A stretch of DNA of 53,888 nucleotides from Candidatus Coproplasma excrementipullorum. GTDB lineage: Bacteria; Bacillota; Clostridia; Christensenellales; Borkfalkiaceae. Of the stretch, positions 1,210 to 49,635 are shown piece after piece. The DNA is taken from positions 1 to 53,888 of the forward strand of contig DVNU01000044.1 of assembly GCA_018714165.1 (NCBI GenBank), written 5' to 3'. Made by a program: the position numbers and the translations under genes. The notes beneath the pieces were generated by a model. That model searched no databases, had not been told where the DNA came from, and saw nothing but the letters and a program-made list of their open reading frames with translations. The stretch's first letter is position 1. Each line of letters opens with the position of its first letter.

Positions 1210-1278
1210 AATGAATTCTCGCAATCTGCGACTGTTCCATTGTGGCGAAAAGTAATTTAAAATAATACTCACCACAAT
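1210..1278. repeat. Palindrome-array element, minimal copy (core plus one cassette)
   Basis: This is the shortest copy of the main intergenic repeat family. A left linker ATGAATT and a hairpin cassette (gcaatctgcgactg) lead into the central imperfect inverted repeat that runs from cattgtgg (1238) to ccacaat (1278) around an A/T-rich centre. It fills nearly the whole gap between the U32 gene and aroA. Confidence 0.8.
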
Positions 1279-1295
1279 ACGGTATTAAAATCACT

Positions 1296-2516
1296 ATGAA
1301 CTACACAGTACAAAACATTTACGGCGCAATTAAAAATCCCAAACAGTCGGTGTGCGTGCCGGGGTCAAAGTCTATCACGGCGCGCGCACTGCTTTTAGCC
1401 GCCCTTGCAGACGGCCGGTCCACGCTCTACGGCGCCCAGACAGAAGGCGACTGTGCCGAATTCATCGGCGGTCTTCGTTCGCTCGGCATAGGGGTGGAGG
1501 TGGACGGCACCACGGTCAACGTTGAAGGCTGCGGCGGCGCTCTGCCCTTAAATCAGGCGGAAGTCTACGTCGGTTCGGCGGGCACCGCGGCACGCTTTTT
1601 AACGGCCCTAGCCGCATTCTCGGACGGGCAATATACATTCAACTCGTCTGAGCAGATGAAGCGCCGCCCCATAGCTCCCTTGATCAATTCGCTCAAGGAT
1701 ATTGGCGCCTCTTTCACCTTTTTGGGGCAGGGAAACTGTTTCCCCTTCATAGTCAAAGGCGCAAAAAATCCCGCAACAAGGGCGGTCGTGAACATAGACA
1801 AGAGCAGTCAGTTTCTCTCTGCACTGCTGATTTGCGCCGTGTGCGCAAAGCGGCCGTTTGAAATTGAGGTCGAGGGCACGCACGGTATGGACTACGTCAA
1901 TATGACCTGCGACATGATGTGGTCGTTCGGAGTAAACATCAAAAGAGTGGGCAATAAGTACACCGTGTTTGGCGGCTACGAGCCCAAGCGCTACGACATC
2001 GAGCCCGACATCTCGGCGGCTTGTTACTTCTACGCCGCAAATAAAATTCTGGGCACGGACATCTCCGTGCGTGGCGTAATGCCCCACACGATGCAGGGCG
2101 ACTACAAGCTCATACAGCTTTTAAAGAATTTTGACGGCGGCGAGGTGGATATGTCTGCCTTCTCCGACCAGGCTCTGACGCTGGCCGCAATCGCGCCATA
2201 CCTCAAAAATCCCACAACCATAACGGGCATAGCTCACATCCGCGGGCAGGAGTGCGACAGAATAAAGGCGATAGTTACAAACCTGACCGCCCTGGGCGTG
2301 CGCGTAGAGGAGAGAGAGGACGGCGTAAAGATATATCCTTCACAGCCCGTCGGGTGCGAGATAGAAACATTCGGCGATCACCGCGTGGCAATGGCCTTTG
2401 CCATAACGGGGTTAAGGTGTAACGGCGTTGTAATCAAAAACGCCGAAGTCTGCCAAAAAACCTTTGCAGGTTACTTTGAAGTGTTGGATAAGCTGATAAA
2501 TCAGCTGACGGAATAA
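1296..2516 (+). CDS. aroA: 3-phosphoshikimate 1-carboxyvinyltransferase (EPSP synthase)
   Basis: The 406-residue product is EPSP synthase, the sixth shikimate-pathway enzyme. It joins shikimate-3-phosphate and phosphoenolpyruvate on the way to chorismate. Substrate-binding signatures are visible in order: PGSKSITARALLLAAL near residue 22 (Lys-Ser pair for S3P), VGSAGTAARFLTAL near 90 (the PEP loop; NAGTA is more usual, so this is the variant Ser-Ala form), SSEQMKRRPI, SSQFLSALL, and GDHRVAMAFAITG near 357. Length is slightly below the roughly 427 residues of typical enzymes but all motifs are present. The gene follows a repeat element and has no clear Shine-Dalgarno sequence before the ATG. 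Confidence 0.96.
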   Translation: MNYTVQNIYGAIKNPKQSVCVPGSKSITARALLLAALADGRSTLYGAQTEGDCAEFIGGLRSLGIGVEVDGTTVNVEGCGGALPLNQAEVYVGSAGTAARFLTALAAFSDGQYTFNSSEQMKRRPIAPLINSLKDIGASFTFLGQGNCFPFIVKGAKNPATRAVVNIDKSSQFLSALLICAVCAKRPFEIEVEGTHGMDYVNMTCDMMWSFGVNIKRVGNKYTVFGGYEPKRYDIEPDISAACYFYAANKILGTDISVRGVMPHTMQGDYKLIQLLKNFDGGEVDMSAFSDQALTLAAIAPYLKNPTTITGIAHIRGQECDRIKAIVTNLTALGVRVEEREDGVKIYPSQPVGCEIETFGDHRVAMAFAITGLRCNGVVIKNAEVCQKTFAGYFEVLDKLINQLTE

Positions 2517-2542
2517 GATTGCATACACGCAGGCGCGCTTTG

Positions 2543-2798
2543 CAATGAATTTTCGTCGCCATTTGCGACTCAATGAATTGGCTTCGCCATGAATTGAACG
2601 CCTTTGGCGTTCATAAATTCTCGCAATCTGCGATTGCTCCATTGTGGTAAAAATATTTTAAAAAAACTTCTCACTATAATGCATGCATAGTGTGCAATTC
2701 GTGCCGCCTTAGATAAATTTAATCGAAGTGGGGGGTTGAGGCGGCAATTCATGAAAGCGCTAAGCGCTTTCAATTCATGCACCGCAGGTGCAATTCAT
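2543..2798. repeat. Palindrome-array element, full copy ending 7 bp before dinB
   Basis: Left side: ATGAATT linkers separate the hairpins ggcttcgcc, gaacgcctttggcgttc and gcaatctgcgattgc. The centre is the inverted-repeat core at about 2640-2681. On the right is a module bounded by gccgcc and ggcggc (about 2702-2745), then AATTCAT linkers separating gaaagcgctaagcgctttc and gcaccgcaggtgc. Linkers are inverted on the two sides of the core, so the element is a nested palindrome. The last linker ends at 2798 and the dinB ATG is at 2806, leaving no Shine-Dalgarno outside the repeat. Confidence 0.85.
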
Positions 2799-2805
2799 CT
2801 GTATC

Positions 2806-4110
2806 ATGTCCCGCATTGTCATTCATAGCGACTTAAACAATTTTTATGCCTCTGTGGAGCGCCGTCTGAACCCCGATCTCAACGGCGTGCCTTTGGCTGT
2901 GTGCGGAAGCGCGGAGGAGAGGCACGGCATTGTGCTGGCCAAGAGCGAGGAGGCCAAAAAGAAGGGCGTAAAGACGGGCGATACCATATGGCAGGCAAAG
3001 CGCAAGTGTCCCGGCATAACCATAGTTCCGCCCCACTTCGACCAGTATATGAAATTTTCGCGCAAGGTCAGGGCCATATATGCGCGCTATACCGACCTCA
3101 TTGAGGGATACGGCATAGACGAATGCTGGCTGGATATCACCAAATCGCTGGCCGTATTTCCCAAATATGACGGCATAAGGGAGGAGGACGGGTATCTCAC
3201 CGACGAGTATCTCCGCTTCCTCGGCGACACCATCCGCTTTGCCGTAAAGGGCGAGCTCGGCCTCACCGTCTCGGTGGGGGTGTCCTTCAATAAAATTTTT
3301 GCAAAGCTCGGCTCCGATCTGAAGAAGCCCGACGGCACCTCGGTCATCTCCGTGCGCAACTACAAAAACGTAATCTACGGCCTGCCCGTCGAAGACCTCT
3401 TAATGGTGGGCGGCGCCACCTCCAAAAAACTGCGTTCGATGGGCTATACTACCATAGGAACGCTGGCCGCCGCCAATGATGACAGGGTAATAAAGGCGCT
3501 GGGCAAGTTCGGGGCCACCCTTTTAACCTATGCCCGCGGCCTCGACGACAGCCCCGTCAAACATATGGACGAGGAGCGCGAGCTCAAGTCCATAGGCAAT
3601 TCCCAGACATATGCCTACGACCTGACATACTTCGAGCAGATAGAGCGCAATATATATGTGCTGTCGGAGAGTGTGGCCGCGCGCCTGCGCGAATCGGACA
3701 GGGGGCTTGCCGACACCGTGCACCTTTGGGTGCGCTACAGCGATATGTCGTCCTTCACCGTCCAGAAAAAGGTGCGACACACCGCTCTCTGCGGCGAGAT
3801 AGCCAAGACGGCCTTCGAGCTGTTCAAGGTCAGCGTAAAACAGCCCTTTGCCGTGCGCTCGCTCGGGGTGACGGTTTCGGGCTTTGACGGCGGCAATTCA
3901 CAGCTGACTCTGGACGAGACCGGCGGTTCCTACGCCAAGCGCGAAAAGGTCGAACGCACAATAGACGACATAAGAAAAAAGCACGGCTATGCCTCCATTC
4001 AGCGCGGCATCCTCATCGACGACCCCGACGGTATGCACAACGACGTAAAGAATACCCACCTCATCAAGCCCGCCCGCTTCGACGACAACGGCGAGGGCGA
4101 AGAGGAGTGA
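2806..4110 (+). CDS. dinB: DNA polymerase IV (Y-family translesion polymerase)
   Basis: The 434-residue protein begins MSRIVIHSDLNNFYASVER, the Y-family palm motif with the first catalytic Asp. The second catalytic motif is GYGIDECWLDIT near residue 103 (usually SIDEAFLD), and SVGVSFNKIFAKLGSDLKKP follows near 157. A helix-hairpin-helix region and the little-finger domain make up the rest. Pol IV performs error-prone bypass of damaged templates and can bind the sliding clamp. I chose ATG 2806 over the upstream in-frame GTG at 2788 because the latter lies inside a repeat hairpin. No ribosome site is visible at either. The gene stands alone between two intergenic regions. Confidence 0.93.
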   Translation: MSRIVIHSDLNNFYASVERRLNPDLNGVPLAVCGSAEERHGIVLAKSEEAKKKGVKTGDTIWQAKRKCPGITIVPPHFDQYMKFSRKVRAIYARYTDLIEGYGIDECWLDITKSLAVFPKYDGIREEDGYLTDEYLRFLGDTIRFAVKGELGLTVSVGVSFNKIFAKLGSDLKKPDGTSVISVRNYKNVIYGLPVEDLLMVGGATSKKLRSMGYTTIGTLAAANDDRVIKALGKFGATLLTYARGLDDSPVKHMDEERELKSIGNSQTYAYDLTYFEQIERNIYVLSESVAARLRESDRGLADTVHLWVRYSDMSSFTVQKKVRHTALCGEIAKTAFELFKVSVKQPFAVRSLGVTVSGFDGGNSQLTLDETGGSYAKREKVERTIDDIRKKHGYASIQRGILIDDPDGMHNDVKNTHLIKPARFDDNGEGEEE

Positions 4111-4232
4111 TGCGCAGCACTATATAATAGTTGTAATAGTGCGGACAAACAGTGGAGAGGTGAGTTCAAAATATATAAGTTCTGGTTATAATTTATATAA
4201 AAAGTTGTGAAAAACGAGCTTTGCTCTATCGT

Positions 4233-4261
4233 TTGACTTATTAAAGCATTTATTTTATAAT
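4233..4261 (+). promoter_or_regulatory. Promoter of glnN
   Basis: TTGACT (4233-4238) and TATAAT (4256-4261) are separated by 17 bp, so initiation is expected near 4268. Its hexamers and the last seven spacer bases are identical to the promoter before the glutamate synthase operon at 10384. Confidence 0.75.
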
Positions 4262-4267
4262 TCCAAT

Positions 4268-4380
4268 ATAAACAAAAACAGCTCCGCGCTCTTTTGCGCG
4301 GTTCAAAAATTTTCCCTATAAAAATTAAGTGACTGTGAGAGAGCCACTTGAAAAATAAATATTAAGAGGAGTTTTAAGAG
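4268..4380 (+). promoter_or_regulatory. glnN leader with two hairpins
   Basis: The 110-base leader contains two small hairpins, ccgcgc/gcgcgg with a six-base loop (about 4285-4303) and aagtg/cactt (about 4328-4350, one internal mismatch). AGGAG lies about 8 bases before the ATG. Paired hairpins recall ANTAR-type nitrogen antitermination targets in clostridia, but the conserved loop bases are not evident, so I make no assignment. Confidence 0.35.
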
Positions 4381-6462
4381 ATGAACGTACCCCAGATGTT
4401 CGGTGAAAACGTATTCAACGACGCCGTTCAGAAAGAGACCCTGCCCAAGGAAGTTTACAAAGCTTTAAGGGCTACAATCGAATCGTGCAAACAGCTCGAC
4501 GTATCCATAGCCGGTACGGTTGCCGCCGCAATGAAGGACTGGGCGGTGTCCAAGGGTGCCACGCACTACACCCACTGGTTCCAGCCCCTCACGGGTCTGA
4601 CGGCCGAAAAGCACGACAGTTTCATCGAACCCGAAGGCGACAAAGTCATCATGCGTCTGACGGGCAAGAGCCTGATCGTCGGTGAGCCCGACGCGTCGTC
4701 CTTCCCCTCCGGCGGCTCAAGGGCCACCTTTATGGCGCGCGGCTACACCGCATGGGATCCCACTTCCCCCGCATTCGTAAAGGAGGGCACCCTCTACATC
4801 CCCACGGTATTCGTATCCTATACGGGCGAAACGCTCGATAAAAAATCTCCCCTTCTCCGTTCGATGACGGCCATCGACAAGCAGGCCAAGCGCATACTTT
4901 CGCTGTTTGGAATAAACTGCAAAAAGGTGTCCACGACCGTCGGCCCCGAACAGGAATACTTCCTCATCACCGAGGAGATGTACGAAAAGAGAAAGGACCT
5001 GCAGCTGTGCGGCAGAACGCTCATCGGCGCTCCCGTCAGCCGCGGCCAGGAGCTTGAAGACCACTACTTCGGTGTACTCAAACCCAAGATTGCAGAGTTT
5101 ATGGCCGACCTTGACAAGGAGCTGTGGTCCTACGGCATCCCTTCCAAGGCAAAGCACAACGAAGTTGCTCCCGCCCAGCACGAAATGGCTCCGGTGTTCT
5201 CCACTACCAATACGGCCGTGGATATGAACATGCTGACCATGGAGATTATGCGCAAGGTGGCTAAAAAGCATGGCCTTGTATGCCTGCTTCACGAAAAGCC
5301 CTTCGAGGGCATAAACGGTTCGGGCAAGCACAACAACTGGTCTATGTCAACCGATGCAGGCTTCAACCTGCTCGACCCCGGCAGCTCGCCCGAACACAAC
5401 ACCCTGTTCAAGCTCGTTCTGGCCGCAGTTGTCAAGGCCGTGGACGACTACCAGGGCATCTTAAGGGCCTCCGTCGCCTCTGCGGGCAACGACCATCGCC
5501 TGGGCGCCAACGAGGCACCCCCCGCAATCATCTCGATTTATCTCGGCGACCAGCTCGGCGCGCTCGTCGATTCGATAGTAAAGGGCGAGGACTATGTGCC
5601 CATAAAGGCGCTCGAAGGTTCGATAGGTGTTCCCGAATCGCCCATCTTCCCCAAGGACGCCACCGACAGAAACAGAACGTCGCCCTTCGCCTTCACGGGC
5701 AACAAGTTCGAGTTCCGCATGCTCGGCTCGCAGGCCAACGTCTCCGACCCCAACATCGTGCTCAACACCATAGTTGCCGACGCCTTCGAACAGTTCGCAG
5801 ACGAACTTGAGGGCGCAAAAGATCTGGAGGCCGCCGCAAACGCCATAACCGAGCGCGAGCTCAAGGCGCACTACCGCATAATCTTCAACCTCGACGGCTA
5901 CGGCCCCGAATGGGAGCCCGAGGCAATGAAGCGCGGACTTTTAAACAACAAGACGACGGCCGATGCCGTTCCCGTCTGCTTCGAGGACAAGAACATTCAG
6001 GTTTTTGTAAAACAGGGCGTATACACCAAGGCCGAGGCTGTGGCCCGCGCCAATATCCAGCTTGAAAATTACACCAAGATTATAAATATCGAGGCGCTTA
6101 CCCTCCTTGAGATGGCCAAACAGGACATAATCCCCGCCGTTTCTGACTACGTAGCCGACCTCTGTGCAAACGTGGCCGCAAAGCAGGCAGTCAACGATTC
6201 CATTCCCTGCAACACCGAAAGAGATCTCATAATGAAGCTGTCGGAGGGCAACGATAAGCTGTCAGCGCTTATCGTTCAGCTTGAGGATATTTTGGAATCG
6301 ATCGTAATAGACGAGGCCATTCCGGCTTCACAGGCCATGGCTCACGAAGTTATTCCCGTTATGGAGGAGATGAGGAAGGTCATCGACGGTATGGAGAAGA
6401 TAACCTCATCCGAATACTGGCCCTATCCCACATACTTCGATTTGCTTTACAGCGTGAAATAA
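4381..6462 (+). CDS. glnN: Type III glutamine synthetase
   Basis: The 693-residue product has the length and signatures of GSIII, the large form found in Bacteroidetes, cyanobacteria and clostridia. It makes glutamine from glutamate, ammonia and ATP. Visible family blocks are FPSGGSRATFMARGYTAWD (near 103), VGPEQEYFLI (near 188), NEVAPAQHEMAP (near 260), HEKPFEGINGSGKHNNW (near 304), AGNDHRLGANEAPPAI (near 368) and DRNRTSPFAFTGNKFEFRM (near 428); these hold the metal-binding Glu and His and the nucleotide-binding Asn/Gly/His residues. A good sigma-A promoter lies upstream. It is the only intact gene of the classical ammonium uptake/GS-GOGAT set in the window, since amt-glnK and two GOGAT genes are damaged. 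Confidence 0.97.
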   Translation: MNVPQMFGENVFNDAVQKETLPKEVYKALRATIESCKQLDVSIAGTVAAAMKDWAVSKGATHYTHWFQPLTGLTAEKHDSFIEPEGDKVIMRLTGKSLIVGEPDASSFPSGGSRATFMARGYTAWDPTSPAFVKEGTLYIPTVFVSYTGETLDKKSPLLRSMTAIDKQAKRILSLFGINCKKVSTTVGPEQEYFLITEEMYEKRKDLQLCGRTLIGAPVSRGQELEDHYFGVLKPKIAEFMADLDKELWSYGIPSKAKHNEVAPAQHEMAPVFSTTNTAVDMNMLTMEIMRKVAKKHGLVCLLHEKPFEGINGSGKHNNWSMSTDAGFNLLDPGSSPEHNTLFKLVLAAVVKAVDDYQGILRASVASAGNDHRLGANEAPPAIISIYLGDQLGALVDSIVKGEDYVPIKALEGSIGVPESPIFPKDATDRNRTSPFAFTGNKFEFRMLGSQANVSDPNIVLNTIVADAFEQFADELEGAKDLEAAANAITERELKAHYRIIFNLDGYGPEWEPEAMKRGLLNNKTTADAVPVCFEDKNIQVFVKQGVYTKAEAVARANIQLENYTKIINIEALTLLEMAKQDIIPAVSDYVADLCANVAAKQAVNDSIPCNTERDLIMKLSEGNDKLSALIVQLEDILESIVIDEAIPASQAMAHEVIPVMEEMRKVIDGMEKITSSEYWPYPTYFDLLYSVK

Positions 6463-6474
6463 ATTAACGCAAAT

Positions 6475-6600
6475 CTCGCCTTGAGGCGGCTGCTTTCCTT
6501 GCTGCCGCCGGGAGGGCTGCTCGAAAGCGTGGCTTCCCTTTGCGACGTCATCTGTAATAATTTGCGGTTTCGCTTGCAAACGTCAAAACTGATAAGCTAA
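6475..6600. repeat. Fragment of second mosaic repeat family
   Basis: Positions 6483-6510 match 38879-38906 in inverted orientation with 2 differences in 28 bases (a ggcggc/gccgcc-bounded hairpin). Positions about 6572-6592 share the string gcggtttcgcttgcaaacgt with 13002-13021. This occupies most of the gap between glnN and the amt leader. I see no protein gene here. Confidence 0.6.
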
Positions 6601-6642
6601 CGAGTATCTTGCCACAGATCATATTTGAATTTCGTTTTTTCA

Positions 6643-6764: not shown

Positions 6765-6793
6765 TAAAAATTTAATAATTGGAGGCTCTTTTT

Positions 6794-7222: not shown

Positions 7223-7260
7223 TTTTCAGCTCATCCTGCTCTCTCATAGATACTTTGGAA

Positions 7261-7518: not shown

Positions 7519-7526
7519 TTTCCTGT

Positions 7527-10031: not shown

Positions 10032-10290
10032 GCAATGAATTCTCGCCGCTTACAGCGGCTCAGCGAATCGAATGCCTTTGGCATTCATGAACTGAAAGCG
10101 TTTCGTTTTCATGAATTCTCGCAACTGAAGTTGCTCCATTGTGGTGAAAAATATTTAAAATGTTTCTCACCTCAATGCAACCTTTAAGGTTGCAATTCAT
10201 GCGTCCTTGAAGAAATGATTGTTGAGTGTGAGGGGTGCGGGGCGCAATTCATGCACGAAGTGCAATTCATGCGAACATAGTGAGCAATTA
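10032..10290. repeat. Palindrome-array element, full copy
   Basis: Cassettes on the left include gaatgcctttggcattc and gaaagcgtttcgttttc with ATGAATT-type linkers. The core is at 10137-10177. To the right are gcaacctttaaggttgc, a degenerate gcgtcc...ggggcgc module, then gcacgaagtgc, all with AATTCAT linkers. It fills the gap after the ClC gene. Confidence 0.85.
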
Positions 10291-16263: not shown

Positions 16264-16578
16264 TGTTTTCGCGCAAAAGCCACGGTTTTGCGCGAGGTTG
16301 CGGAGGTCGCGAAATCGCTTAACGGTAGAAATGAATTCCACCTTGCGATTTCCGGCGTTAATTTATCGCGCGAAACTGTAGTATTCGCGCGAAGAGGAGG
16401 GATAACGGCGCAAAATTGCAAGTTGAGTTTATTCAACTTGCCTAAAGCAAAGTTTATCCCGACGAAATTGCCCACATTCACCTGCCGAGGCGCAGGTATG
16501 CGCAAATTGAGACGAGCAAGGTTTTTTCAAAACAGCAGACACCTGCTGTTTTGCCTTGCGAGATGAGCGAGGGCATCA
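16264..16578. repeat. Second mosaic repeat family, longest copy
   Basis: A roughly 300-bp element. It has hairpin cgcgcaaaa/ttttgcgcg; stem gaaatcgc (16311-16318) / gcgatttc (16345-16352) around ttaacggtagaaatgaattc; hairpin cgcgcgaa/ttcgcgcg; gcaagttgag/caacttgc; cctgc/gcagg; and aaaacagca/tgctgtttt. Its inverted homologue lies at about 50290-50600. The far end (16544-16577) matches 38937-38970 in inverted orientation with 2 differences in 34 bases. I see no protein gene in it. Confidence 0.75.
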
Positions 16579-16593
16579 ATATTAAAAGAATAG

Positions 16594-16620
16594 AAAAGCA
16601 CGGGATTATTCCGTGCTTTT
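16594..16620 (+). terminator. Terminator of the GOGAT operon
   Basis: A 10-bp stem, aaaagcacgg/ccgtgctttt, with a 7-base loop continues into T-rich sequence. Confidence 0.8.
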
Positions 16621-16648
16621 TTATTTGTGCCGACAATGCGGCAATCAC

Positions 16649-17605: not shown

Positions 17606-17916
17606 ATGAATTGCAAGCTGCGCTTGCATTAATTGGGCGGCACATATGCGCCCATTAATTGCGCCCATAGCCCATCTCATTTTACTTACCGTTTTGTAAG
17701 GGCGCATGAATTGCAACTTTTACAAAGTTGCATTGAGGCGAGGAATATTTTAAAATAATTACTCACCACAATGGAGCAATCGCAGATTGCGAGAATTCAT
17801 GCCGCCTTCGGCTAGCCTAATTGTGAAGAGGCGTTGAGGCGGCAATTTATGGAGAAGGCTCAGCCTTCGAGAATTCATGAACGCCATGGGCGTTCAATTA
17901 ATGCACCAAAGGTGCA
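17606..17916. repeat. Palindrome-array element, core in reverse orientation
   Basis: Here the cassette normally left of the core is on the right (reverse complement), so the whole element is flipped. The core is at about 17731-17773. Cassettes: gcaagctgcgcttgc, gcaacttttacaaagttgc, gcaatcgcagattgc, gagaaggctcagccttcgag, gaacgccatgggcgttc, gcaccaaaggtgc. The gccgcc...ggcggc module is at about 17801-17844. It lies in the region just before pyrG, whose own ribosome site CAGGAG follows. Confidence 0.85.
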
Positions 17917-20737: not shown

Positions 20738-20973
20738 GTTAAATGCGTGCGTTGCACGCGTGAAATGCCGCATAACCTGTCATTTCAATCGGCTCTATAA
20801 AAAGGCGGCGTGAAATGCATACTTCGTATGCGTTAAGGTATCAAGTTATGCGCCGAAGGCGCACAATATTCCGCCTCAACGCACGGCGAGGCCGTGCATT
20901 TCACGAATACCGAAGGTGTTTATTTCACGCGCATTCCAATGCGCATTTAACGCACGCGCAGCGTGCATTTAAC
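20738..20973. repeat. Palindrome-array element, GTGAAAT/ATTTCAC and GTTAAAT/ATTTAAC linker type
   Basis: It has the same architecture as the ATGAATT arrays but with other linkers: gttaaat, gtgaaat on the left and atttcac, atttaac on the right. Cassettes include gcgtgcgttgcacgc, gcatacttcgtatgc, gcacggcgaggccgtgc, gcgcattccaatgcgc and gcacgcgcagcgtgc. The core (about 20829-20882) begins tgcgtta, ends caacgca and contains its own hairpin, atgcgccgaaggcgca. It occupies the dapL-malQ gap. Confidence 0.8.
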
Positions 20974-20994
20974 TGATAAATCGGAGGTGCAAAT

Positions 20995-28155: not shown

Positions 28156-28170
28156 AATGGTGCCTCTTGC

Positions 28171-28430
28171 CGTGAAATACAGAGCAAAGCACTGCGTGAA
28201 ATGCGCCCGCGGCGCGTGAAATGAATACCTGCGGTATTCGTGAAATACACAGCTGCGCTATGCGTTATGGTATAAATAATGCGGCGTAGCCGCAAAGATG
28301 CTCACTACAACGCAACCTGTAAGGGTGCATTTCACACCGCCTTTGACAAAGCCGATTGAAATAATGTGTTGAGGCGGTATTTCACTCCGCATAAGCGGAA
28401 TTTCACGCACGGCAAAGCCGTGCAATTCAC
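28171..28430. repeat. Palindrome-array element, GTGAAAT/ATTTCAC linker type
   Basis: Left linkers gtgaaat, right linkers atttcac. Cassettes include gcgcccgcggcgc, gaatacctgcggtattc, ccgcataagcgg and gcacggcaaagccgtgc. The core is at about 28258-28313 (tgcgtta...caacgca, with hairpin tgcggcgtagccgca). The ccgcc...ggcgg module (about 28336-28378) is shared with the ATGAATT-type arrays, which ties both linker types into one family. Confidence 0.8.
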
Positions 28431-28433
28431 TCA

Positions 28434-28467
28434 AAAAGTAATTGCCCGTAAACGGGCAATTACTTTT
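28434..28467 (-). terminator. Terminator of dnaA
   Basis: A 15-bp stem, aaaagtaattgcccg and complement, with a four-base loop, directly after the dnaA stop in transcription direction. The A/T ends make it usable in both directions. Confidence 0.75.
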
Positions 28468-34937: not shown

Positions 34938-35201
34938 ATGAATTGCGCTTTGCGCATGAATGTTCGGCACGGGTGCCTCAATGAATTGAAGGCAGAGCCT
35001 TCGTGAATTCTCGCAGCCTATGGTTGTTCCATTTTGGTAAAAATTATTTAAAATATTTCTCGCCTCAATGCACGCTTTGGCGTGCTATTAATGCCGCCAT
35101 ATTATGCTCTTGATTGAAAAGAGTGGTTGAGGCGGCAGTTCATGGCACGCCAGTGCCAATTCATGCAAACGCAGTTTGCAATTCATTCAGCCATGGGCTG
35201 A
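34938..35201. repeat. Palindrome-array element, full copy upstream of smc
   Basis: Left cassettes gcgctttgcgc and gaaggcagagccttc lead to the core at about 35030-35070. Then come gcacgctttggcgtgc, the gccgcc...ggcggc module (about 35093-35136), and ggcacgccagtgcc, gcaaacgcagtttgc and ttcagccatgggctgaa with AATTCAT-type linkers. It occupies the leader of smc. Confidence 0.85.
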
Positions 35202-38825: not shown

Positions 38826-38878
38826 TAGTCGCCCGTTTAGCGGTAATTAGTGCCGCCATGAATTCTCGCGGGCGTTCT

Positions 38879-38985
38879 CGGCGGCAGTAAGGAGAGCAGC
38901 CGCCTCGGTCACCGTTCGGGCGACCTGATGCCCTCACTCACCTCGCAAGGCAAAACAGCATACTATGCTGCTTTGAGAATACCTT
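38879..38985. repeat. Second mosaic repeat family, partial inverted copy after smc
   Basis: 38879-38906 is the inverted match of 6483-6510 (2 differences in 28). 38937-38970 is the inverted match of 16544-16577 (2 differences in 34). It includes hairpin aaacagca/tgctgcttt, whose loop differs from the 16.5-kb copy while the stem is kept. Confidence 0.7.
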
Positions 38986-39103
38986 AATGAAAACGCAGTT
39001 TGCAATTCATGCCGCCTTTGATTAACTCAATCAAAGTGAGGGGTTGAGGCGGCAATTCATGAAAGCATAGCTTTCAATTTATGCGCGCTTGCGCGCAATT
39101 CAT
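38986..39103. repeat. Palindrome-array element without core, upstream of ftsY
   Basis: Cassette aaacgcagttt (as in the copies at 35165 and 49613), the gccgcc...ggcggc module (about 39009-39053), gaaagcatagctttc and gcgcgcttgcgcgc, separated by AATTCAT or AATTTAT. The central inverted repeat is missing. The ftsY ribosome site begins 7 bases later. Confidence 0.8.
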
Positions 39104-41934: not shown

Positions 41935-41955
41935 AAATAAATCATTAATTAACCT

Positions 41956-41980: not shown

Positions 41981-42016
41981 CTGTCAATTCGGATTTGGAA
42001 AATAAAAATTATGTAA

Positions 42017-42049
42017 GGCGGCGGAAAAATTTGCAATTTTTCCGCCGCC
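42017..42049. terminator. Convergent terminator hairpin
   Basis: A 14-bp stem, ggcggcggaaaaat and complement, with a five-base loop. The stem's A/T part sits at the loop side. It separates the + NifX-like gene from the - microprotein/rubrerythrin operon. Confidence 0.6.
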
Positions 42050-42122
42050 CGCGACCCGCCGCGCCGTAAGGCACAGCCGCATTCCTTACAACAATGTGTA
42101 AAGCACATATTTTGGTAAGGAA

Positions 42123-43427: not shown

Positions 43428-43436
43428 ATTAAAAAA

Positions 43437-43466: not shown

Positions 43467-43471
43467 TAAGT

Positions 43472-44077: not shown

Positions 44078-44204
44078 TTTCATCCTCCTTGCTGTGCTTA
44101 AAATAAAGCTGTTTTCATTAATATTATACCACCAAATTTGCTTTCGTCAAGAGGCGAGTTTTTAATTTTACAAATTCGGGCGGCAGTCCTATATACCAGA
44201 ATAT

Positions 44205-44240
44205 GCGGCGGGCGCGGGTCATTTGACCCGCGCCCGCCGC
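44205..44240 (-). terminator. Terminator of radA
   Basis: A perfect 17-bp stem (gcggcgggcgcgggtca and complement) with a two-base centre. It shares the base GCGGCGGGCG with the terminators at 22519 and 23806. Confidence 0.7.
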
Positions 44241-44267
44241 AATTTTGGCTTGCTATATTCAAAATTT

Positions 44268-45638
44268 TCAGCTCTGCCCCTTGAACAGATTTTTTATCAT
44301 AGAGTTTACATACAGCACGGGCACAATGTTTATTTTGTCGGCGTATTTCGCCACCGACTTCATATTTTTGGCGGGCAGAATTACGCGCTTGAAGCCCATC
44401 TTTACGCACTCCTGCACGCGCTTTTCGGCGTACTGCACGGCGCGCACTTCGCCCGTTAAGCCCACTTCGCCGAATATTGCGGTGAATTTGTCTATCGGTT
44501 CGTCGCGGTGGGCGGAGGCCAGTGCCGCACATACGGCCAGATCGCACGCGGGCTCGCTAAGCTTTATGCCGCCCATAACATTTATGTACACGTCGAAGGA
44601 GTAGAAGGGGAGGGAGCACCTCTTTTCAAGCACTGCAAGGAGTAGCACCAGCTTGTTATAGTCTATGCCCAGCGGCATTCTGCGCGGCTGGCCGAACGAG
44701 GTCTTGGATATGAGCGTCTGAATCTCCACGTTCATACACCTGTTGCCCGTCTGTGCGGGCGTCACGGCGCATCCCGCCTCCTGGCCGCGGCTCTCGGAGA
44801 GGAATATGCCCGAATAGTCGGTGACGGCCACAATGCCCTCGCCCGTCATCTCGAACACGCCCACCTCGGAAACATTGCCGAACCTGTTCTTTACGGCCCG
44901 CAGTATGCGGTAGTTTTCCTGGTTTTCGCCCTCAAAGTAGAGCACGGTGTCCATAATATGCTCCAGCACCTTGGGCCCGGCCAGCGCGCCCTCCTTGGTG
45001 ACGTGGCCTACGATGAAAAAGGTTATGCCGCGGCTCTTGGCTATCCTCATAAGCTTGGTTGCGCACTCGCGCACCTGTCCAACGGAGCCCGCGGAGGAGG
45101 AAAGATCGTCGGTATACACGGCCTGAATGGAGTCGATTATACAGAACTCCACGCCATCCAGCTCGCCCTCCAAATTGTCTATGCAGGTGTCGTTTACAAT
45201 CAAAAAGTCCTCGCAGTCAAGGTGCAGGCGCTCGGCGCGCATCTTCACCTGCGAACAGCTCTCCTCTGCGGAGAAGTATAAAACGCGGTGCTTAAGGGAT
45301 AGGTGGGCGGCAATCTGCGTCAGGAGGGTGGATTTGCCTATGCCGGGGTCGCCGCCGAGCAGTACAAGAGATCCCGCCACTATGCCGCCGCCGAGCACGT
45401 TGTCGAACTCGGAGATGCCGCTGCCAGTGCGGTCATACCTCTCAAAGGTGACGGCCGAAAGCTTTTTTGCGTGCGGCGCGGAATACACCGCGCCCCTGGA
45501 CTTTGCCGCGGGCCCGGTCTCCTTTACGGCCTCCTCGGCCATGGTATTGAATTTTCCGCACGAAGGGCACCTGCCCAGCCACCTGGGGCTGGTAGCGCCG
45601 CATTCGGCGCAGACGAAGATGGTACTATTTTTTGCCAT
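44268..45638 (-). CDS. radA: DNA repair protein RadA
   Basis: The 456-residue RecA-like helicase processes recombination branches. It has the N-terminal zinc finger CAECGATSPRWLGRCPSC, Walker A GGDPGIGKSTLLTQ near 95, the KNRFG motif in AVKNRFGNVSEVGVFEM near 250, and a C-terminal Lon-like domain ending LPAKNMKSVAKYADKI...VPVLYVNS. RBS GAGAGG is 7 bases upstream of the ATG. It follows ispDF in the same direction, separated by a palindrome-array element. Confidence 0.97.
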   Translation of the reverse strand: MAKNSTIFVCAECGATSPRWLGRCPSCGKFNTMAEEAVKETGPAAKSRGAVYSAPHAKKLSAVTFERYDRTGSGISEFDNVLGGGIVAGSLVLLGGDPGIGKSTLLTQIAAHLSLKHRVLYFSAEESCSQVKMRAERLHLDCEDFLIVNDTCIDNLEGELDGVEFCIIDSIQAVYTDDLSSSAGSVGQVRECATKLMRIAKSRGITFFIVGHVTKEGALAGPKVLEHIMDTVLYFEGENQENYRILRAVKNRFGNVSEVGVFEMTGEGIVAVTDYSGIFLSESRGQEAGCAVTPAQTGNRCMNVEIQTLISKTSFGQPRRMPLGIDYNKLVLLLAVLEKRCSLPFYSFDVYINVMGGIKLSEPACDLAVCAALASAHRDEPIDKFTAIFGEVGLTGEVRAVQYAEKRVQECVKMGFKRVILPAKNMKSVAKYADKINIVPVLYVNSMIKNLFKGQS

Positions 45639-45662
45639 CGCGTATCCTCTCTATAAACGATA

Positions 45663-45899
45663 AATGAATTGAACGCCTATGGCATTCATAAATTGGCTTC
45701 GCCATGAATTGAAAACAGTTCCTGTTTTCATGAATTCTCGCAATCTCGCGATTGCTTCATTGAGGTAAGTATCTATTAAAATATTTTTTTTCCGCAATGC
45801 ACACGTAGTGTGCAATTCATGGAGAAGGCGTAAGCCTTCGAGAATTCATTGAGGCGTGTACGCCGAAAATTCATGTCACGGTGGAGCCGTGACAATTCA
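45663..45899. repeat. Palindrome-array element overlapping the ispDF stop
   Basis: Left cassettes gaacgcctatggcattc, ggcttcgcc, gaaaacagttcctgttttc and gcaatctcgcgattgc; core about 45758-45799; right cassettes gcacacgtagtgtgc, gagaaggcgtaagccttcgag, ggcgtgtacgcc and gtcacggtggagccgtgac. The last AATTCAT, read on the minus strand as ATGAATT, supplies the TGA stop of ispDF. The gagaaggc...gccttcgag cassette also occurs at about 17848, with a different loop. Confidence 0.85.
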
Positions 45900-47051
45900 T
45901 TGCTTTGCCTCAGGCTTGCGTTCCAGCAACGCCACCGCGTCAGCCTCGATGCCGAGGCCGCGGCCTATAAATCCCAGCTTTTCGGCCGTGCCCGCAGAAA
46001 CTCCCACCGAACTTTCAGGAAGGCTCAGCACCTCGGCCAAATTGTGTTGCATGGCGCATATGTGTGGGGCAAGGCGGGGCTTTTCGGCGCGTATCGTAAC
46101 TGCAACATTTAACGGCTTAAAGCCGTGAGCCCCTATCAGGGAAACAACTTCGGCCAGGAGCTTTAAGCTGTCCGCGCCGCTGTAGGCGGGGTCGGTGTCG
46201 GGGAAGTAGTGCCCTATATCCTTCAGGCCCGCCGCCGAAAGCAGTGCATCCATCAGCGCGTGGACGGGTACGTCGCCGTCGCTGTGGGCAATTAACCCGC
46301 ATATATGCGGCACTTTCACGCCGCACAGCGTAACATAGTCCTGCTCTTTTCCAAAGGCGTGAATGTCCGTGCCGATGCCTATGGCCTGTCCTGCGGCCGC
46401 GTTGACGGCGGGATATGTCTTTACAAAATCGCTCTTATAGGTCAGCTTGATATTGTCCCTGCTGCCCTCGCACAGCGTTGGTTGGCCAATATATGCGCGG
46501 TAAACGGCGCTGTCGTCGGTGTAGGCGCGTCCGTCCCCGATCGCCCGCTCATATGCGGCGCGTATGTCCTCAGTGAAGAATCCCTGCGGCGTCTGCAAAG
46601 CAAATAGTTTTCCGCGGTCGGGCACGTCGGCAATCTTTCCGCCGTCGGATACGGCCACCGTGTCGGTAACGGGTACGGCGCAAATGCCCGAACGGCTGCG
46701 TTCAACGCAGGATATACAGCCCTCAATTGTCTCTTTTGTGACGTATGGCCGCGCGCCGTCGTGTATCAGTACGATGTCGCCCGTGCATTCTTTAAGGGCG
46801 TTGTAGACGCTCTCCGTCCTCGTCGCGCCGCCCGTTGTGACGATATAGTTGAAGGGCGCGCACAGCGCGCGCACCTCGTCGATATCGGCGGGGGAGGAGG
46901 CGACAACGACCTCGTCTATCGCGGGCAGGTCAAACTTTTCAAGGGTATGAAAGAGCGCGGGGGATCCTAAGAGGGGGGCCAGCAGTTTGTTTTTATCAAA
47001 CCCGGCCCGCTCGCCTCTGCCCGCCGCGCATATAATTGCGCTTATCTTCAT
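45897..47051 (-). CDS. ispDF: Bifunctional IspD-IspF enzyme of the MEP pathway
   Basis: The 384-residue fusion carries IspD (1-215; AICAAGRGERAGFDKNKLLA, IVTTGGATRTESVYNAL, LIHDGARPYVT, DSAVYRAY) and IspF (226-384; GIGTDIHAFGKEQDYVTLCG, HSDGDVPVHALMDALLSAAG, IGHYFPDTDPAYSGADS). They perform two non-consecutive steps of isoprenoid precursor synthesis, CDP-ME formation and ME-cPP cyclisation. The IspF Asp/His zinc ligands are present. It is the last gene of a DUF1538 - P-II - P-II - ispDF operon and overlaps the P-II-like gene by 4 bases (ATGA). Its stop lies inside a repeat linker. Confidence 0.96.
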   Translation of the reverse strand: MKISAIICAAGRGERAGFDKNKLLAPLLGSPALFHTLEKFDLPAIDEVVVASSPADIDEVRALCAPFNYIVTTGGATRTESVYNALKECTGDIVLIHDGARPYVTKETIEGCISCVERSRSGICAVPVTDTVAVSDGGKIADVPDRGKLFALQTPQGFFTEDIRAAYERAIGDGRAYTDDSAVYRAYIGQPTLCEGSRDNIKLTYKSDFVKTYPAVNAAAGQAIGIGTDIHAFGKEQDYVTLCGVKVPHICGLIAHSDGDVPVHALMDALLSAAGLKDIGHYFPDTDPAYSGADSLKLLAEVVSLIGAHGFKPLNVAVTIRAEKPRLAPHICAMQHNLAEVLSLPESSVGVSAGTAEKLGFIGRGLGIEADAVALLERKPEAKQ

Positions 47052-47422
47052 TGTGCGTCCGCCGAACCTTCGTCAGTCTGTTCGGGCCCGGCCTCTTTTG
47101 CGGCGGGTTCGCCCGTGCCGCTCATGCCCACCACGTCGTCCACGGCCATGGAGAAGGCTATGCCCTGGCCCTCGCTCTTGAGCCCCGCGTTGCGGTAGAG
47201 CGCGTGCAGGACGGCATCCTTGATGTCCGCGGGCACCAGAATCATAACTATTTCCTTTTCGGGCTGAATGGTTATGTGGAAGAACTTTTCGGCCTCCTTG
47301 TTGGCCGTGCCGCGTGCGTGTATAACCGTGCCGCCGCGCGCGCCCGCCTCCTTGGCGGCGTCCATAACCACGTCAGAATATCCTTCGTTGACTATGCAGA
47401 AAACCACTTCATATGCGGCCAT
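47048..47422 (-). CDS. P-II-like protein of the DUF1538 operon, member 1
   Basis: The 124-residue protein is a P-II (GlnB-like) family member: YEVVFCIVNEGYSDVVMDAA, a T-loop-like GARGGTVIHARGTANKEAEKF, ITIQPEKEIVMILVPAD. The canonical uridylylation Tyr of the GlnB T-loop is not seen. The C-terminus (AAKEAGPEQTDEGSADAQ) is an acidic extension. GGAGG is about 9 bases upstream of the ATG and the gene starts 1 base after the preceding stop. P-II-like proteins next to DUF1538 transporters probably bind a nucleotide and gate the membrane partner, by analogy with GlnK-Amt. Confidence 0.82.
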   Translation of the reverse strand: MAAYEVVFCIVNEGYSDVVMDAAKEAGARGGTVIHARGTANKEAEKFFHITIQPEKEIVMILVPADIKDAVLHALYRNAGLKSEGQGIAFSMAVDDVVGMSGTGEPAAKEAGPEQTDEGSADAQ

Positions 47423-47423
47423 A

Positions 47424-47870
47424 TCACTTTTCCTCCCTGACTACCGATTTGTTGTTGCTTAAAAATCCGAACAGCAGCGTGCCTATCACGCTGGTCAGCG
47501 GAATGGTAAAGGCTATGCCCTTGCCGTCCCTCACGGTCCTGAACTTCCTGTCGAGCATATCCAGCGCTTCCGGCAGCCGGTTCTGCTGAACTACTGAAAG
47601 TATTACGCTCTTGCTCGTGTCGGTGAGGCCCAGGTACCTCAGCATATTGGCGTCCGCCGTGCCTTCGGCCAGCACTATGGCCTGAAGATTCACGTCGAAT
47701 GACTGTATCAGGTCGGCATAAAATTCCGTCTTGCTTCTGTTTATTACGGTCACGAGCAGTTTGAGGGGGTTGGCTGTAACCGTGTTGCTCCTGGGCGCCT
47801 GTTTTGCCTCGGCCTTGGCGCTTCTGGAAATCCTGCGCCTCAGCCTGCCCTTTGTTTCGTTGTCGGCCAT
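47424..47870 (-). CDS. P-II-like protein of the DUF1538 operon, member 2, with basic N-terminus
   Basis: The 148-residue protein has a 30-residue basic N-terminus (GRLRRRISRSAKAEAKQAPR). A P-II-like ferredoxin fold follows (NPLKLLVTVINRSKTEFYADLIQSF, VNLQAIVLAEGTAD, KSVILSVVQQNRLPEALDML) and ends with a hydrophobic stretch (GIAFTIPLTSVIGTLLFGFL). It lacks the usual T-loop charge pattern. That end matches the corresponding part of member 1 (GIAFSMAVDDVVG), so the two probably arose by duplication and may form mixed trimers. It starts 12 bases after the DUF1538 stop. Confidence 0.75.
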   Translation of the reverse strand: MADNETKGRLRRRISRSAKAEAKQAPRSNTVTANPLKLLVTVINRSKTEFYADLIQSFDVNLQAIVLAEGTADANMLRYLGLTDTSKSVILSVVQQNRLPEALDMLDRKFRTVRDGKGIAFTIPLTSVIGTLLFGFLSNNKSVVREEK

Positions 47871-47882
47871 TTGTCTCCCTCC

Positions 47883-49451
47883 TTATTTAAAGTATATTAT
47901 CTGCTCGTCGTCTGCGGCGAGTATGCGTTTGAGCGTGATGCTCTCGCGCACCTTCCTGGCCATAACGGCCTTGAAACCGAGGAGCTGAATGGTGATTAGA
48001 GGGGTCATCGCCACCATCGCAACAACGCCGTATGCAAAGTTATAAATTGCCGTGTTGTCCGTATCCGCCGACAAACCGAATATGCTCACGCATGCTCCTA
48101 CGACCATTGGCAGAATAAAGGTGGACGTCAACGGGCCGCTCGCTACACCGCCGGAGTCGAAAGCTATTGCCGTGTATATTTTGGGAACAAAGAACGAAAG
48201 ACCTAACGATATGAGATAGCCTGGTATCAGGTAGTATAAAATGGAGAAACCAAATATAACTCTTATTATCGAAAGGCATATCGATATGCCGACGGCGACG
48301 GAGAGCGCAAGCATCATCTCCAGTTTTTTTACGCCGCCGCCCGTGATCTCTTCGACCTGCTTGTTCAATACGTGTACGGCAGGCTCCGCAAGCACTACCA
48401 CCATGCCTATTACAAAGCCGAATACTGCCAGAAGGGGCTGGCTGAATGAGGCCAGCTCCTGACCTATTTTAAAGCCTATGGGCATAAAGCCCGCCTCTAC
48501 CGACGTCAGAAAGATTACGAGCCCTATGTATGTGTAGCCTATGCCTATTGCGATGCGGATAAGCTTTTGCTTGGGCAGTTTCAGAACTGTAAACTGAAGT
48601 ATAAGGAAAAATATTACAATAAGGCCCAAAGCCAGCGCAACGTCGCCTATCTTACCCACAAGCAAATCTGCAAAGCCGCTGCCCGTCAGTACATGCTCTA
48701 TGCTGTACATGCTCGTGTCGTATTCGGAAAGGCTGCCGCTCGACATAAGCGAAAGCGCCATAACGGCGATTATCGGGCCTACGGAACACAGCGCAACCAG
48801 ACCGAATGAATTTTCGCTGGCGTTTCTGCCGCCCACGGTCGCCGCAATGCCAACACCCAGCGCCATTATAAAGGGCACGGTAATGGGACCCGTCGTCACG
48901 CCGCCAGAATCGAAGGAGAGAGGCACGAGACCGAATTTTCCCTGTTCGGCCATAAGCGCGCATACGGCAAACAGCATAAGGTAAAAAAACATTATCAGCA
49001 TAGATAAGTCTTTGTGGAAGATTATCTTGAGCACGGCGATGACCAGGAATATCCCTACGCCTATGCCCACCGTGCAGATGAGCAGCCATTCTCCCGCGGC
49101 GCCGCCGCCCGGCATAATGTCCTTAACCTGCGTGGCGAGTACGGTCAGGTCGGGTTCGGCTATGGTTATCAGCAGTCCCATCAAAAAGCATACCGCAACG
49201 AGTACCCATATTTTTTTGGATTTGGTCAGGCCCGATCCCGTGTATTCTCCCATGGGGGTCATTGCCAGGTCGGCGCCGAGGTTGAACAGGGCTATGCCCA
49301 CGATCAGGCCTATGGCAGAGAGAATAAAAGCCGTAGTTTCGACGCCCGTGAGGTTGACTGCCGGAGTGAATGAGATTATCAGCACTATCAGCGTTACGGG
49401 CGCTACCGAAGTTACGGCCTCTTTTAATTTGGAGAGTAAAATTTTATGCAT
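47883..49451 (-). CDS. DUF1538 membrane protein (putative transporter)
   Basis: The 522-residue protein has about 12 hydrophobic segments and consists of two homologous halves. Matching motifs are AEPDLTVLATQVKDI / AEPAVHVLNKQVEEITGG and FDSGGVTTGPITVPFIMALG / FDSGGVASGPLTSTFILPMV, each in a loop between helices. The polar repeated motif FDSGGVxxGPxT suggests a substrate or ion site formed by both halves. The family has no established substrate. It heads an operon with two P-II-like proteins and ispDF. AAGGA lies about 10 bases upstream of the ATG. A G-rich tract (49484-49515) sits in the upstream region. Confidence 0.85.
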   Translation of the reverse strand: MHKILLSKLKEAVTSVAPVTLIVLIISFTPAVNLTGVETTAFILSAIGLIVGIALFNLGADLAMTPMGEYTGSGLTKSKKIWVLVAVCFLMGLLITIAEPDLTVLATQVKDIMPGGGAAGEWLLICTVGIGVGIFLVIAVLKIIFHKDLSMLIMFFYLMLFAVCALMAEQGKFGLVPLSFDSGGVTTGPITVPFIMALGVGIAATVGGRNASENSFGLVALCSVGPIIAVMALSLMSSGSLSEYDTSMYSIEHVLTGSGFADLLVGKIGDVALALGLIVIFFLILQFTVLKLPKQKLIRIAIGIGYTYIGLVIFLTSVEAGFMPIGFKIGQELASFSQPLLAVFGFVIGMVVVLAEPAVHVLNKQVEEITGGGVKKLEMMLALSVAVGISICLSIIRVIFGFSILYYLIPGYLISLGLSFFVPKIYTAIAFDSGGVASGPLTSTFILPMVVGACVSIFGLSADTDNTAIYNFAYGVVAMVAMTPLITIQLLGFKAVMARKVRESITLKRILAADDEQIIYFK

Positions 49452-49483
49452 TATATTTTATCCTTAACAGGGTTTGCCGCGTA

Positions 49484-49515
49484 GAGGATAGGATTTAGGG
49501 GATAGGGGTTAGGGA
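49484..49515 (+). other. G-rich direct-repeat tract
   Basis: Five or more runs of two to four G separated by ATA or TTTA/TTA (ggatagg, ttagggg, ataggggttaggg). It can in principle form a G-quadruplex on the + strand. It lies 33 bases upstream of the DUF1538 start, on that gene's non-coding side. Confidence 0.5.
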
Positions 49516-49545
49516 AGTTGGCCTGCGGCGCATATTTTTTCCTAC

Positions 49546-49635
49546 ACGCGCGGCTTAAGTCGCGTATTTCATGAACGCGGAGCGTTTATTTCATACACAA
49601 AGTGTATTTCACGCAAACGTAGTTTGCATTTCACT
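49546..49635. repeat. Palindrome-array element, short copy with ATTTCAT/ATTTCAC linkers
   Basis: Cassettes gaacgcggagcgttt, tacacaaagtgta and gcaaacgtagtttgc, separated by atttcat or atttcac. The last is the same cassette as at about 35165. No core or ggcggc module is present. It abuts the 3' end of the S4 gene. Confidence 0.7.

What the first reader, a model, noticed from the sequence alone, without database searches (positions are those of the whole stretch)
1210..49635. A dispersed family of nested-palindrome arrays with constant 7-bp linkers and exchangeable hairpin cassettes
Seen directly: ten intergenic sites (1210, 2543, 10032, 17606, 20738, 28171, 34938, 38986, 45663, 49546) have variable hairpins of 13-19 bp separated by a constant 7-bp linker. 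The linker is ATGAATT left of a central inverted-repeat core and AATTCAT right of it, so the whole element is a nested palindrome. The cassettes behave as a shared pool: gaacgcc...ggcgttc at 2.6 and 17.9 kb; gagaaggc...gccttcgag at 17.8 and 45.8 kb; gcaaacgYagtttgc at 35.2 and 49.6 kb. Stems are kept while loops differ. I do not recognise this as BIME, REP, ERIC or a MITE. Inference: cassettes are gained and lost by recombination or slippage, and the arrays may act as RNA structures, as sites for a DNA-binding or cutting protein, or in chromosome organisation.
Basis: partly seen in the sequence, partly recalled or inferred. Interest (0 to 1): 0.88.

Follow-up and report, generated by a model that had tools for sequence, protein, structure and literature searches.

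The report
Hairpin-spaced 7-base arrays with partner protein
Short DNA elements scattered between the genes of an uncultured bacterium are built from a repeated 7-base word separated by tiny hairpins, and they look like gene-less copies of a mobile unit whose only gene encodes a small protein of unknown function, which would give that protein a first candidate job.

Summary
Three of the ten listed sites carry that second type. An element has two inverted arms, typically of up to four 7-nt linkers.

One arm equals Rfam's candidate RNA Gut-1. It behaves like folded DNA: on the strand reading outward from the core, loops are GNA/GNNA 167 to 3. No REP-type transposase was found in this 81% complete genome.

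The partner is a 23S_rRNA_IVP (S23) gene, present in 6 of 7 Gut-1-array genomes (own included) and 3 of 54 other relatives. One copy has the gene between two four-linker arms. Elsewhere IVP genes are flanked by inverted tandem 7-mers without hairpins; 13 hairpin-type IVPs lie on one side of one tree branch, five of them labelled by eye.

Best reading: non-autonomous copies of an IVP-encoding mobile element; the linkers are the heptamers and the hairpins fold away. Movement, target duplication and IVP-DNA binding are not shown.

The parts
1211..1284 (.). remnant: one ATGAATT linker, proximal hairpin and core (type A)
   Evidence: read directly
2545..2798 (+). type A element between an EPSP synthase gene and a Y-family polymerase (IMS) gene; four linkers each side counting one-base variants, long cassette in the right arm
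   Evidence: gene names
10035..10270 (+). type A element, long cassette 10201-10245
17606..17915 (+). type A element with a long cassette on both sides (right one, left one read by eye; outer right end approximate)
20738..20973 (.). type B element (GTGAAAT/ATTTCAC, outer linkers GTTAAAT/ATTTAAC)
   Evidence: Gut-1 below cut-off at 20893-20975 (-)
28172..28430 (.). complete type B element, 4+4 linkers; Gut-1 model matches both arms on opposite strands, below cut-off (28170-28251 +, 28374-28467 -)
34938..35186 (+). type A element between an RNase III gene and an SMC gene
   Evidence: gene names
38858..39103 (+). type A element between the SMC gene and an SRP54-type GTPase (ftsY-like) gene; left half occupied by another dispersed repeat
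   Evidence: gene names
45664..45900 (.). type A element, four linkers each side counting one variant, includes TGAG..CGAA and GGAG..CGAG hairpins
49566..49634 (+). solo type B arm; Rfam Gut-1 RF01706 at 49561-49636 (-), 50.8 bits, cut-off 50
49484..49517 (.). short tandem heptamer tract (GGGWTAG-like) without hairpins beside the solo arm; resembles by eye the tracts around the third G000 IVP gene
   Evidence: read directly; compare L201

Best explanation
The arrays are non-autonomous copies (MITE-like) of a small mobile element whose only gene encodes a 23S_rRNA_IVP / S23 four-helix-bundle protein. Each arm is an array of a 7-base word. In this group a mini-hairpin sits between neighbouring words; when the strand reading outward from the core becomes single, the hairpins (C-GNA-G or C-GNNA-G loops, tandem G.A ends) fold away and the linkers become one contiguous row of heptamers, the same kind of row that flanks other IVP genes without hairpins. 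An IVP oligomer reads the row and drives the element's spread, acting in trans on gene-less copies; each linker type has its own IVP. Shown here: anatomy, strand polarity, IVP co-occurrence, an intact gene between two arms, period-7 flanks of many IVP genes, grouping of hairpin-type IVPs in the tree. Inferred: IVP binding to the heptamers, single-strand recognition, and mobility in trans.
For: Genome-wide copies: 68 vs 0 and 78 vs 2. IVP over cut-off in 6 of 7 Gut-1-array genomes (own included) and 3 of 54 others among 61, Fisher p 1e-5, 6e-5 without the own genome. The three others, G014, G030 and G043, have tandem heptamers round the gene. Gene-bearing copy: G000 C52, left arm L072 1626-1732, IVP ORF 1814-2164, right arm 2218-2317, each arm with four linkers allowing one mismatch. 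G000 has three IVP genes with three repeat types: C7:26756 beside an AATTCAT arm, C52 between ATTTCAC arms, C7:25023 between CCCTAAY-like tracts. G006 has an IVP gene with an ATTTAAC arm between the same two genes that flank window element 2545-2798. Period 7: lag-7 score >=18 of 28 in 26 of 44 upstream and 25 of 44 downstream flanks, 7 of 83 control stretches, below 1 of 44 shuffled; heptamers inverted between the sides in 22 of 24. Cyanobacterial plasmid IVPs, 10 of 26 plasmid hits fetched: 9 and 8 of 10, 4 of 40 controls. Linker-blind hairpin-array detector: 9 of 58 IVP loci, 1 of 104 controls, 0 of 116 shuffled. Tree: 13 hairpin-type IVPs on one side of one branch, support 82/81, 83% of bootstrap trees, shuffled mean 11.8 changes. 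Polarity: GNA+GNNA 167 vs TNC+TNNC 3 of 354 distinct hairpins; tandem G.A ends 21 outward, 0 inward; GNYA 29, GNRA 20. GNA and GNNA loops are the very stable DNA mini-hairpins (PMC4686876, passages).
Against: No target-site duplication in 12 complete elements and no clean empty site at strain level, so movement is inferred. IVP has no known catalytic activity (PMC4990558, passage); its closest solved relative is an uncharacterized protein. G045 (76% complete), G101 (75%) and G414 carry Gut-1 matches without an IVP over cut-off; in the 398-genome phylum sample the association is p 0.026, and 0.11 without the own genome. In G050, G330 and a faecal phage record the whole palindrome lies 5' of the IVP gene rather than around it, and the G000 gene at C7:26756 has an arm on one side only. 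Seven of 83 control stretches near IVP genes also show period 7. Five of the 13 hairpin labels in the tree were set by eye, and the tree is unrooted. Twelve of 58 IVP loci passed neither detector. The plasmid IVPs were found with a tandem-type query, so they say nothing on hairpin types. Linker deviations are not compensated between arms (14 of 48 rank pairs in 12 elements deviate, none restored), so nothing supports pairing of the two arms. Equality of period and linker length could be coincidence in part. At three orthologous gaps G000 has type A and G045 type B, which simple transposition does not explain.
Confidence: 0.6

Rival explanations
1. Structured non-coding RNA or intercistronic mRNA structure (the Rfam Gut-1 reading): the hairpins work in transcripts, as RNA genes or as stabilisers between operon genes.
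For: RF01706 matches; elements lie in short gaps, 31 of 37 between co-directional genes (rough ORF calls); hairpins keep pairing while sequence varies.
Against: Gut-1 matches both arms of one palindrome on opposite strands. Loop polarity favours the strand opposite to the one Rfam models. Loops are GNA/GNNA with GNYA at least as common as GNRA, and no C(UUCG)G was found. Element orientation relative to genes is mixed: 11 downstream, 8 upstream, 14 of 33 unresolved by the script. Co-directional background is 138 of 187 pairs, so the excess is small. It does not explain the IVP association.
Confidence: 0.15
2. Dispersed binding sites of IVP acting as a regulator or chromosome organiser; the copies spread by recombination, not by an element of their own, and IVP genes sit by such sites for autoregulation.
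For: All three G000 IVP genes lie near a repeat type; palindrome directly 5' of the gene in several genomes; heptamer rows inverted on the two sides.
Against: Patchy presence within one genus (Gut-1 matches in 4 of 37 genus members searched); presence and absence at orthologous gaps; IVPs with arrays on phage and plasmid records. None of these excludes it.
Confidence: 0.15
3. REP/BIME-like elements moved by a Y1 (RAYT) transposase.
For: Intergenic, high copy, paired inverted polar hairpin units, single-strand folding signature.
Against: No PF01797 match in G000, G006, G045, G033, G036 or G039; only G050 of the seven Gut-1-array genomes has one, while 16 genomes without Gut-1 matches do.
Confidence: 0.03
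4. Reverse-transcriptase-dependent element: IVP acts like the related bAvd protein of diversity-generating retroelements.
For: L201 IVP hits PF22296 bAvd weakly (E 0.0015, below cut-off); weak PF05635 matches in G011, G012, G020, G021 and G024 lie beside RVT_1 genes; G000 and G036 each have one RVT_1 match.
Against: No RVT_1 match in 5 of the 7 Gut-1-array genomes: G006, G033, G039, G045, G050.
Confidence: 0.05

Closest known systems
Gut-1 RNA (Rfam RF01706; Weinberg et al. 2010, PMC2864571, passages read)
   Same: The model is the linker-hairpin array: GUGAAAU words with three hairpins between them.
   Different: Described as a human-gut-only non-coding RNA; here it is one arm of a dispersed palindromic element, found on both strands and linked to an IVP gene; the model reports none of the AATTCAT sites of this window.
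23S rRNA intervening sequences (IVS) with S23p ORF (PMC4990558, passages read)
   Same: Selfish element with inverted repeats whose ORF is S23p/IVP; heptameric direct repeats before the ORF are reported there; mobility suspected there.
   Different: IVS sit in 23S rRNA; these sit between protein genes in dozens of copies, with hairpins between heptamers and gene-less derivatives.
REP / BIME with RAYT
   Same: High-copy intergenic polar hairpin units in inverted pairs (definition recalled; PMC2817692 seen only in the search listing).
   Different: No Y1 transposase found in G000; 7-nt linkers, mostly up to four per arm.
Heptamer tandem repeats of Xanthomonas/Nostoc (PMC4692102) and Beggiatoaceae/cyanobacteria (PMC4679880), passages read
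   Same: Period 7, intergenic, high copy, no mechanism known to their authors.
   Different: No hairpins between the words; the terms 'four helix' and 'S23' do not occur in either main text. Here period-7 rows are tied to IVP genes.
MITEs
   Same: Short gene-less palindromes with an apparent gene-bearing relative (definition recalled).
   Different: No target duplication seen; arms are word arrays, not simple terminal repeats.

Membership tests
Gut-1 RNA RF01706 | scores above the curated cut-off | tested here: met
   1 of 10 window sites, 50.8 vs 50 bits; three further matches below the cut-off. One of 14 control genomes (E. coli) also gives a match, below the cut-off
Gut-1 RNA RF01706 | expressed as an RNA from the modelled strand | not testable with these tools
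   no expression data; loop polarity points to the other strand
REP/BIME (RAYT) | Y1 transposase encoded in the genome | tested here: not met
   0 PF01797 matches in G000 (81% complete) and in 5 of the 6 other Gut-1-array genomes
MITE | gene-bearing relative with the same ends in the genome | tested here: met
   G000 C52 element with IVP between two four-linker arms; one such copy, and it is of linker type B
MITE | target-site duplication | tested here: not met
   0 of 12 complete elements, lengths 2 to 9
MITE | empty and filled orthologous sites | tested here: inconclusive
   smc-ftsY gap filled in G000 and G045, without linkers in G052 and G042, but too divergent to read the junction
23S IVS element | encodes a PF05635 protein | tested here: met
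   for the gene-bearing copy: E 5e-27; the ten window sites have no such gene in them
23S IVS element | located in 23S rRNA | tested here: not met
   elements lie between protein-coding ORFs
bAvd of diversity-generating retroelements | reverse transcriptase in the genome, adjacent to the gene | tested here: not met
   5 of 7 Gut-1-array genomes have no RVT_1 match; the single G000 match is on another contig, C57
CRISPR array | non-palindromic unique spacers between direct repeats | tested here: not met
   the segments between the words are self-complementary hairpins; cas genes were not searched

The most novel reading that the evidence does not exclude
IVP/S23 four-helix-bundle proteins are the mobility factors of a widespread class of DNA elements defined by rows of 7-base words, which would explain heptamer repeats long noted in cyanobacteria, Xanthomonas and Beggiatoaceae; one group has inserted extruding DNA mini-hairpins between the words, so that the readable row exists only when one strand is single, and Gut-1 'RNA' is such a row.
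Probability: 0.4. Interest if true: 0.95.

Novelty: new variant of a known kind. Interest (0 to 1): 0.82.

Why it matters
S23/IVP proteins have been known from 23S rRNA intervening sequences without a function (PMC4990558, passage). Heptamer repeats in several phyla have been reported without a mechanism (PMC4679880: no mechanism of transfer is evident; PMC4692102: no detailed literature on heptameric repeats). This links the two by testable protein-word pairs, reinterprets an Rfam RNA family as part of a DNA element, and offers a natural case in which DNA mini-hairpins seem to be selected on one strand.

Tried and rejected
RAYT transposase: not found. Reverse transcriptase partner: no match in 5 of 7 array genomes. 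Target duplication: none in 12 elements. Pairing of left with right linkers: deviations are not compensated. Element orientation against transcription: mixed, 14 of 33 unresolved by the script. Linker count per arm as a strict rule: holds best for type B; type A arms are more decayed. A gradient of cassette conservation from the core outward: no clear trend. A genome-collection pattern scan gave 26 stretches; of seven viewed only L168 (an uncultured Clostridia MAG) holds a real array; the viral scan gave one stretch, without an array. A first hairpin-chain detector was too strict (1 of 58 at its threshold) and was replaced by a second one; only the second is used. An automatic measure of the smc-ftsY gap failed for several genomes, G000 and G045 among them; those two were read by eye. 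Papers: 'Gut-1 RNA' found no paper by name. The listings of the other searches show no title describing this system, but most listings are capped (20,779 papers and 15 listed), so 'not in print' is limited to this library and these listings. PMC10910872 (passages) names 23S rRNA IVP only in a figure legend on CRISPR-linked genes; PMC5524665 (passages) lists four helix bundle proteins in tables only; PMC2267715 (passages) surveys stem-loop repeats and was not searched for this word. Not verified: that Xanthomonas XCC0516 (PDB 2gsc, weak match E 0.3) is flanked by that genome's GGGAATC rows.
Full report
What is there. The window lies in contig C24 of a 1.72 Mb, 91-contig, 81% complete genome. 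ATGAATT is found 41 times in the window against 7.3 expected, and AATTCAT, 8-23 bases, AATTCAT 68 times in the genome against none for the reversed pattern. The same pattern gives 0 to 9 matches in each of 40 relatives.

Anatomy. I fetched 32 stretches of this genome and parsed arms outward from the core: proximal hairpin, linker 1, hairpin 1, linker 2, hairpin 2, linker 3, hairpin 3, linker 4. Type B: 54 arms, 36 with four linkers, 12 with three, 6 with two, none with more. Type A: 59 arms, 13 with four, 12 with three, 33 with two, one call of five that looks spurious. Reversed sequence gave 5 two-linker arms. Hairpin 1 of one arm is often a 42-45 nt cassette; 49 distinct long ones were collected from G000, G045 and L168, 32 of the GCCGCC..GGCGGC kind. 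The core is roughly RTTGWGGTGA, an AT-rich stretch, then TCACCWCAAY (read). Elements fill short gaps between genes, 31 of 37 between co-directional genes against 138 of 187 background pairs (ORF calls by length only), in both orientations.

Strand polarity. Read outward from the core, hairpins close with C-GNA-G or C-GNNA-G loops 167 times, and with the reverse-complement loops 3 times, among 354 distinct hairpins from twelve genomes or metagenome bins and two phage records (first pass). Hairpins with tandem G.A ends are outward 21 times and inward never. GNA and GNNA loops with G-C stems are the exceptionally stable DNA mini-hairpins (PMC4686876, passages). Among four-base loops GNYA (29) is not rarer than GNRA (20), and no C(UUCG)G was found. 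That RNA would favour GNRA and UUCG is recalled knowledge. I take this as evidence for a folded DNA strand, not as proof. Linkers that deviate are not compensated on the other arm, so the palindrome is not explained by pairing of its arms.

Known name. Rfam's Gut-1 (RF01706) matches at 49561-49636 above its cut-off and at three more places below it, on both arms of the 28172-28430 element in opposite directions. Its authors list it as human gut only and likely non-coding RNA (PMC2864571, passages). Among 61 genomes, own included, 7 have Gut-1 matches, four of 37 in the genus; in a 398-genome phylum sample, 5. One of 14 control genomes rings below the cut-off. Other genomes use other 7-base words: ATTTAAC, ATATCAC, ATATAAC, ATTTCTC and, in G043, TCGATAT by eye.

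The partner gene. Two G000 arms flank an ORF instead of the usual core. It encodes a PF05635 protein, 23S_rRNA_IVP (E 5e-27), whose closest solved relative is 2rld, an uncharacterized protein with five chains. The gene-bearing copy has four linkers on each side, one mismatch allowed (L072 1626-2317, ORF 1814-2164). PF05635 over cut-off is present in 6 of the 7 Gut-1 genomes and in 3 of the other 54 (Fisher p 1e-5); in the phylum sample 3 of 5 against 57 of 393 (p 0.026; 0.11 without the own genome). None of 14 control genomes has the family. G000 has three such genes and three repeat types, one each: an AATTCAT arm on one side of C7:26756, ATTTCAC arms around C52:10831, CCCTAAY-like tracts around C7:25023. 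CCCTAAY doublets occur at six places in G000 (one of them the IVP flank) and in none of 30 relatives searched. In G006 the IVP gene with an ATTTAAC arm lies between the same EPSP synthase and Y-family polymerase genes (70% and 68% DNA identity) that flank window element 2545-2798.

Period seven. Many IVP genes without hairpin arrays are flanked by tandem repeats of period 7. A lag-7 score of at least 18 of 28 was reached in 26 of 44 upstream and 25 of 44 downstream flanks, 7 of 83 stretches about 1 kb away, and fewer than 1 of 44 shuffled flanks; 7 was the best lag in 51 of 61 flanks that had any lag at that level; the words are inverted between the two sides in 22 of 24 cases. The 44 loci are those returned by two searches (15 over cut-off from the relatives, 29 best-scoring from the phylum sample). 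Ten of 26 plasmid hits, all ten cyanobacterial and found with a tandem-type query, were fetched: 9 and 8 of 10 against 4 of 40. The published Coxiella IVS also has heptameric repeats before its S23p ORF (PMC4990558, passages). A detector that knows no linker word found hairpin arrays at 9 of 58 IVP loci, 1 of 104 control stretches and 0 of 116 shuffled flanks; 37 of 58 had period 7; none had both; 12 had neither. Five of those 12 show hairpin rows by eye (L219, L209, L220, L221, L263). In a tree of 56 IVPs the 13 hairpin-type proteins lie on one side of one branch (82/81), inside a group with four tandem-type proteins of the same order (100/99), with 1 change against a shuffled mean of 11.8. 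The tree is unrooted, the alignment short, and five labels were set by eye.

Synthesis. The linker length equals the period of the tandem rows. If the hairpins fold out, AATTCAT-AATTCAT-AATTCAT-AATTCAT is a heptamer row like the others. This explains why linker length is constant while hairpin length varies from 7 to 22 nt, why hairpin sequence is free but loop type and strand are not, and why each linker type comes with its own IVP in G000. The gene-less palindromes are then MITE-like copies. Movement, and IVP binding to the rows, are inferences. No target duplication was found, and the nearest relatives are too far (about 66-86% DNA identity over the longer matches) to read an empty site. 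At three shared gaps G000 and G045 have different linker types, which suggests replacement or conversion and is unexplained.

Against the rivals. A RAYT was not found, a reverse transcriptase is missing from 5 of 7 carriers, and RNA function is not excluded but fits the polarity and the IVP link poorly. A binding-site role without mobility fits nearly as well as mobility and needs the bench tests listed.

Noticed in passing
window 38873-38986: Another dispersed palindromic repeat sits inside the smc-ftsY element; the same stretch matches many places in G045, and some in G043, G052 and G047.
   Followed up: no
L168, L090, L183: A repeat with TCATTTCGAGCG...GAGATTTCTCC...GTCGAAATGACA (or a variant) is inserted near the hairpin-1 position of these elements.
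   Followed up: no
L258, L259 (plasmids of Anabaena sp. 90 and Pseudanabaena galeata): IVP genes with heptamer rows lie between cas6 and cas4 of CRISPR loci; PMC10910872 lists IVP among CRISPR-linked genes in a legend.
   Followed up: partly
L262, L263 (MT835815.1, MT835590.1): Two faecal records deposited as bacteriophage carry IVP genes with palindromic hairpin rows 5' of the gene.
   Followed up: partly
G011, G012, G020, G021, G024: Weak PF05635 matches lie beside RVT_1 genes, perhaps bAvd of diversity-generating retroelements.
   Followed up: no
G045 contigs C45 and C46: In G045 rnc and smc are on different contigs, with an element after rnc near the end of C46 and another gene before smc on C45: a rearrangement at the repeats or an assembly break.
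   Followed up: no
window 16527-16628 and 42010-42077: Sub-threshold Rfam matches: L20 leader (27.5 of 58.7 bits) and COG2827 RNA (30.3 of 49.1).
   Followed up: no
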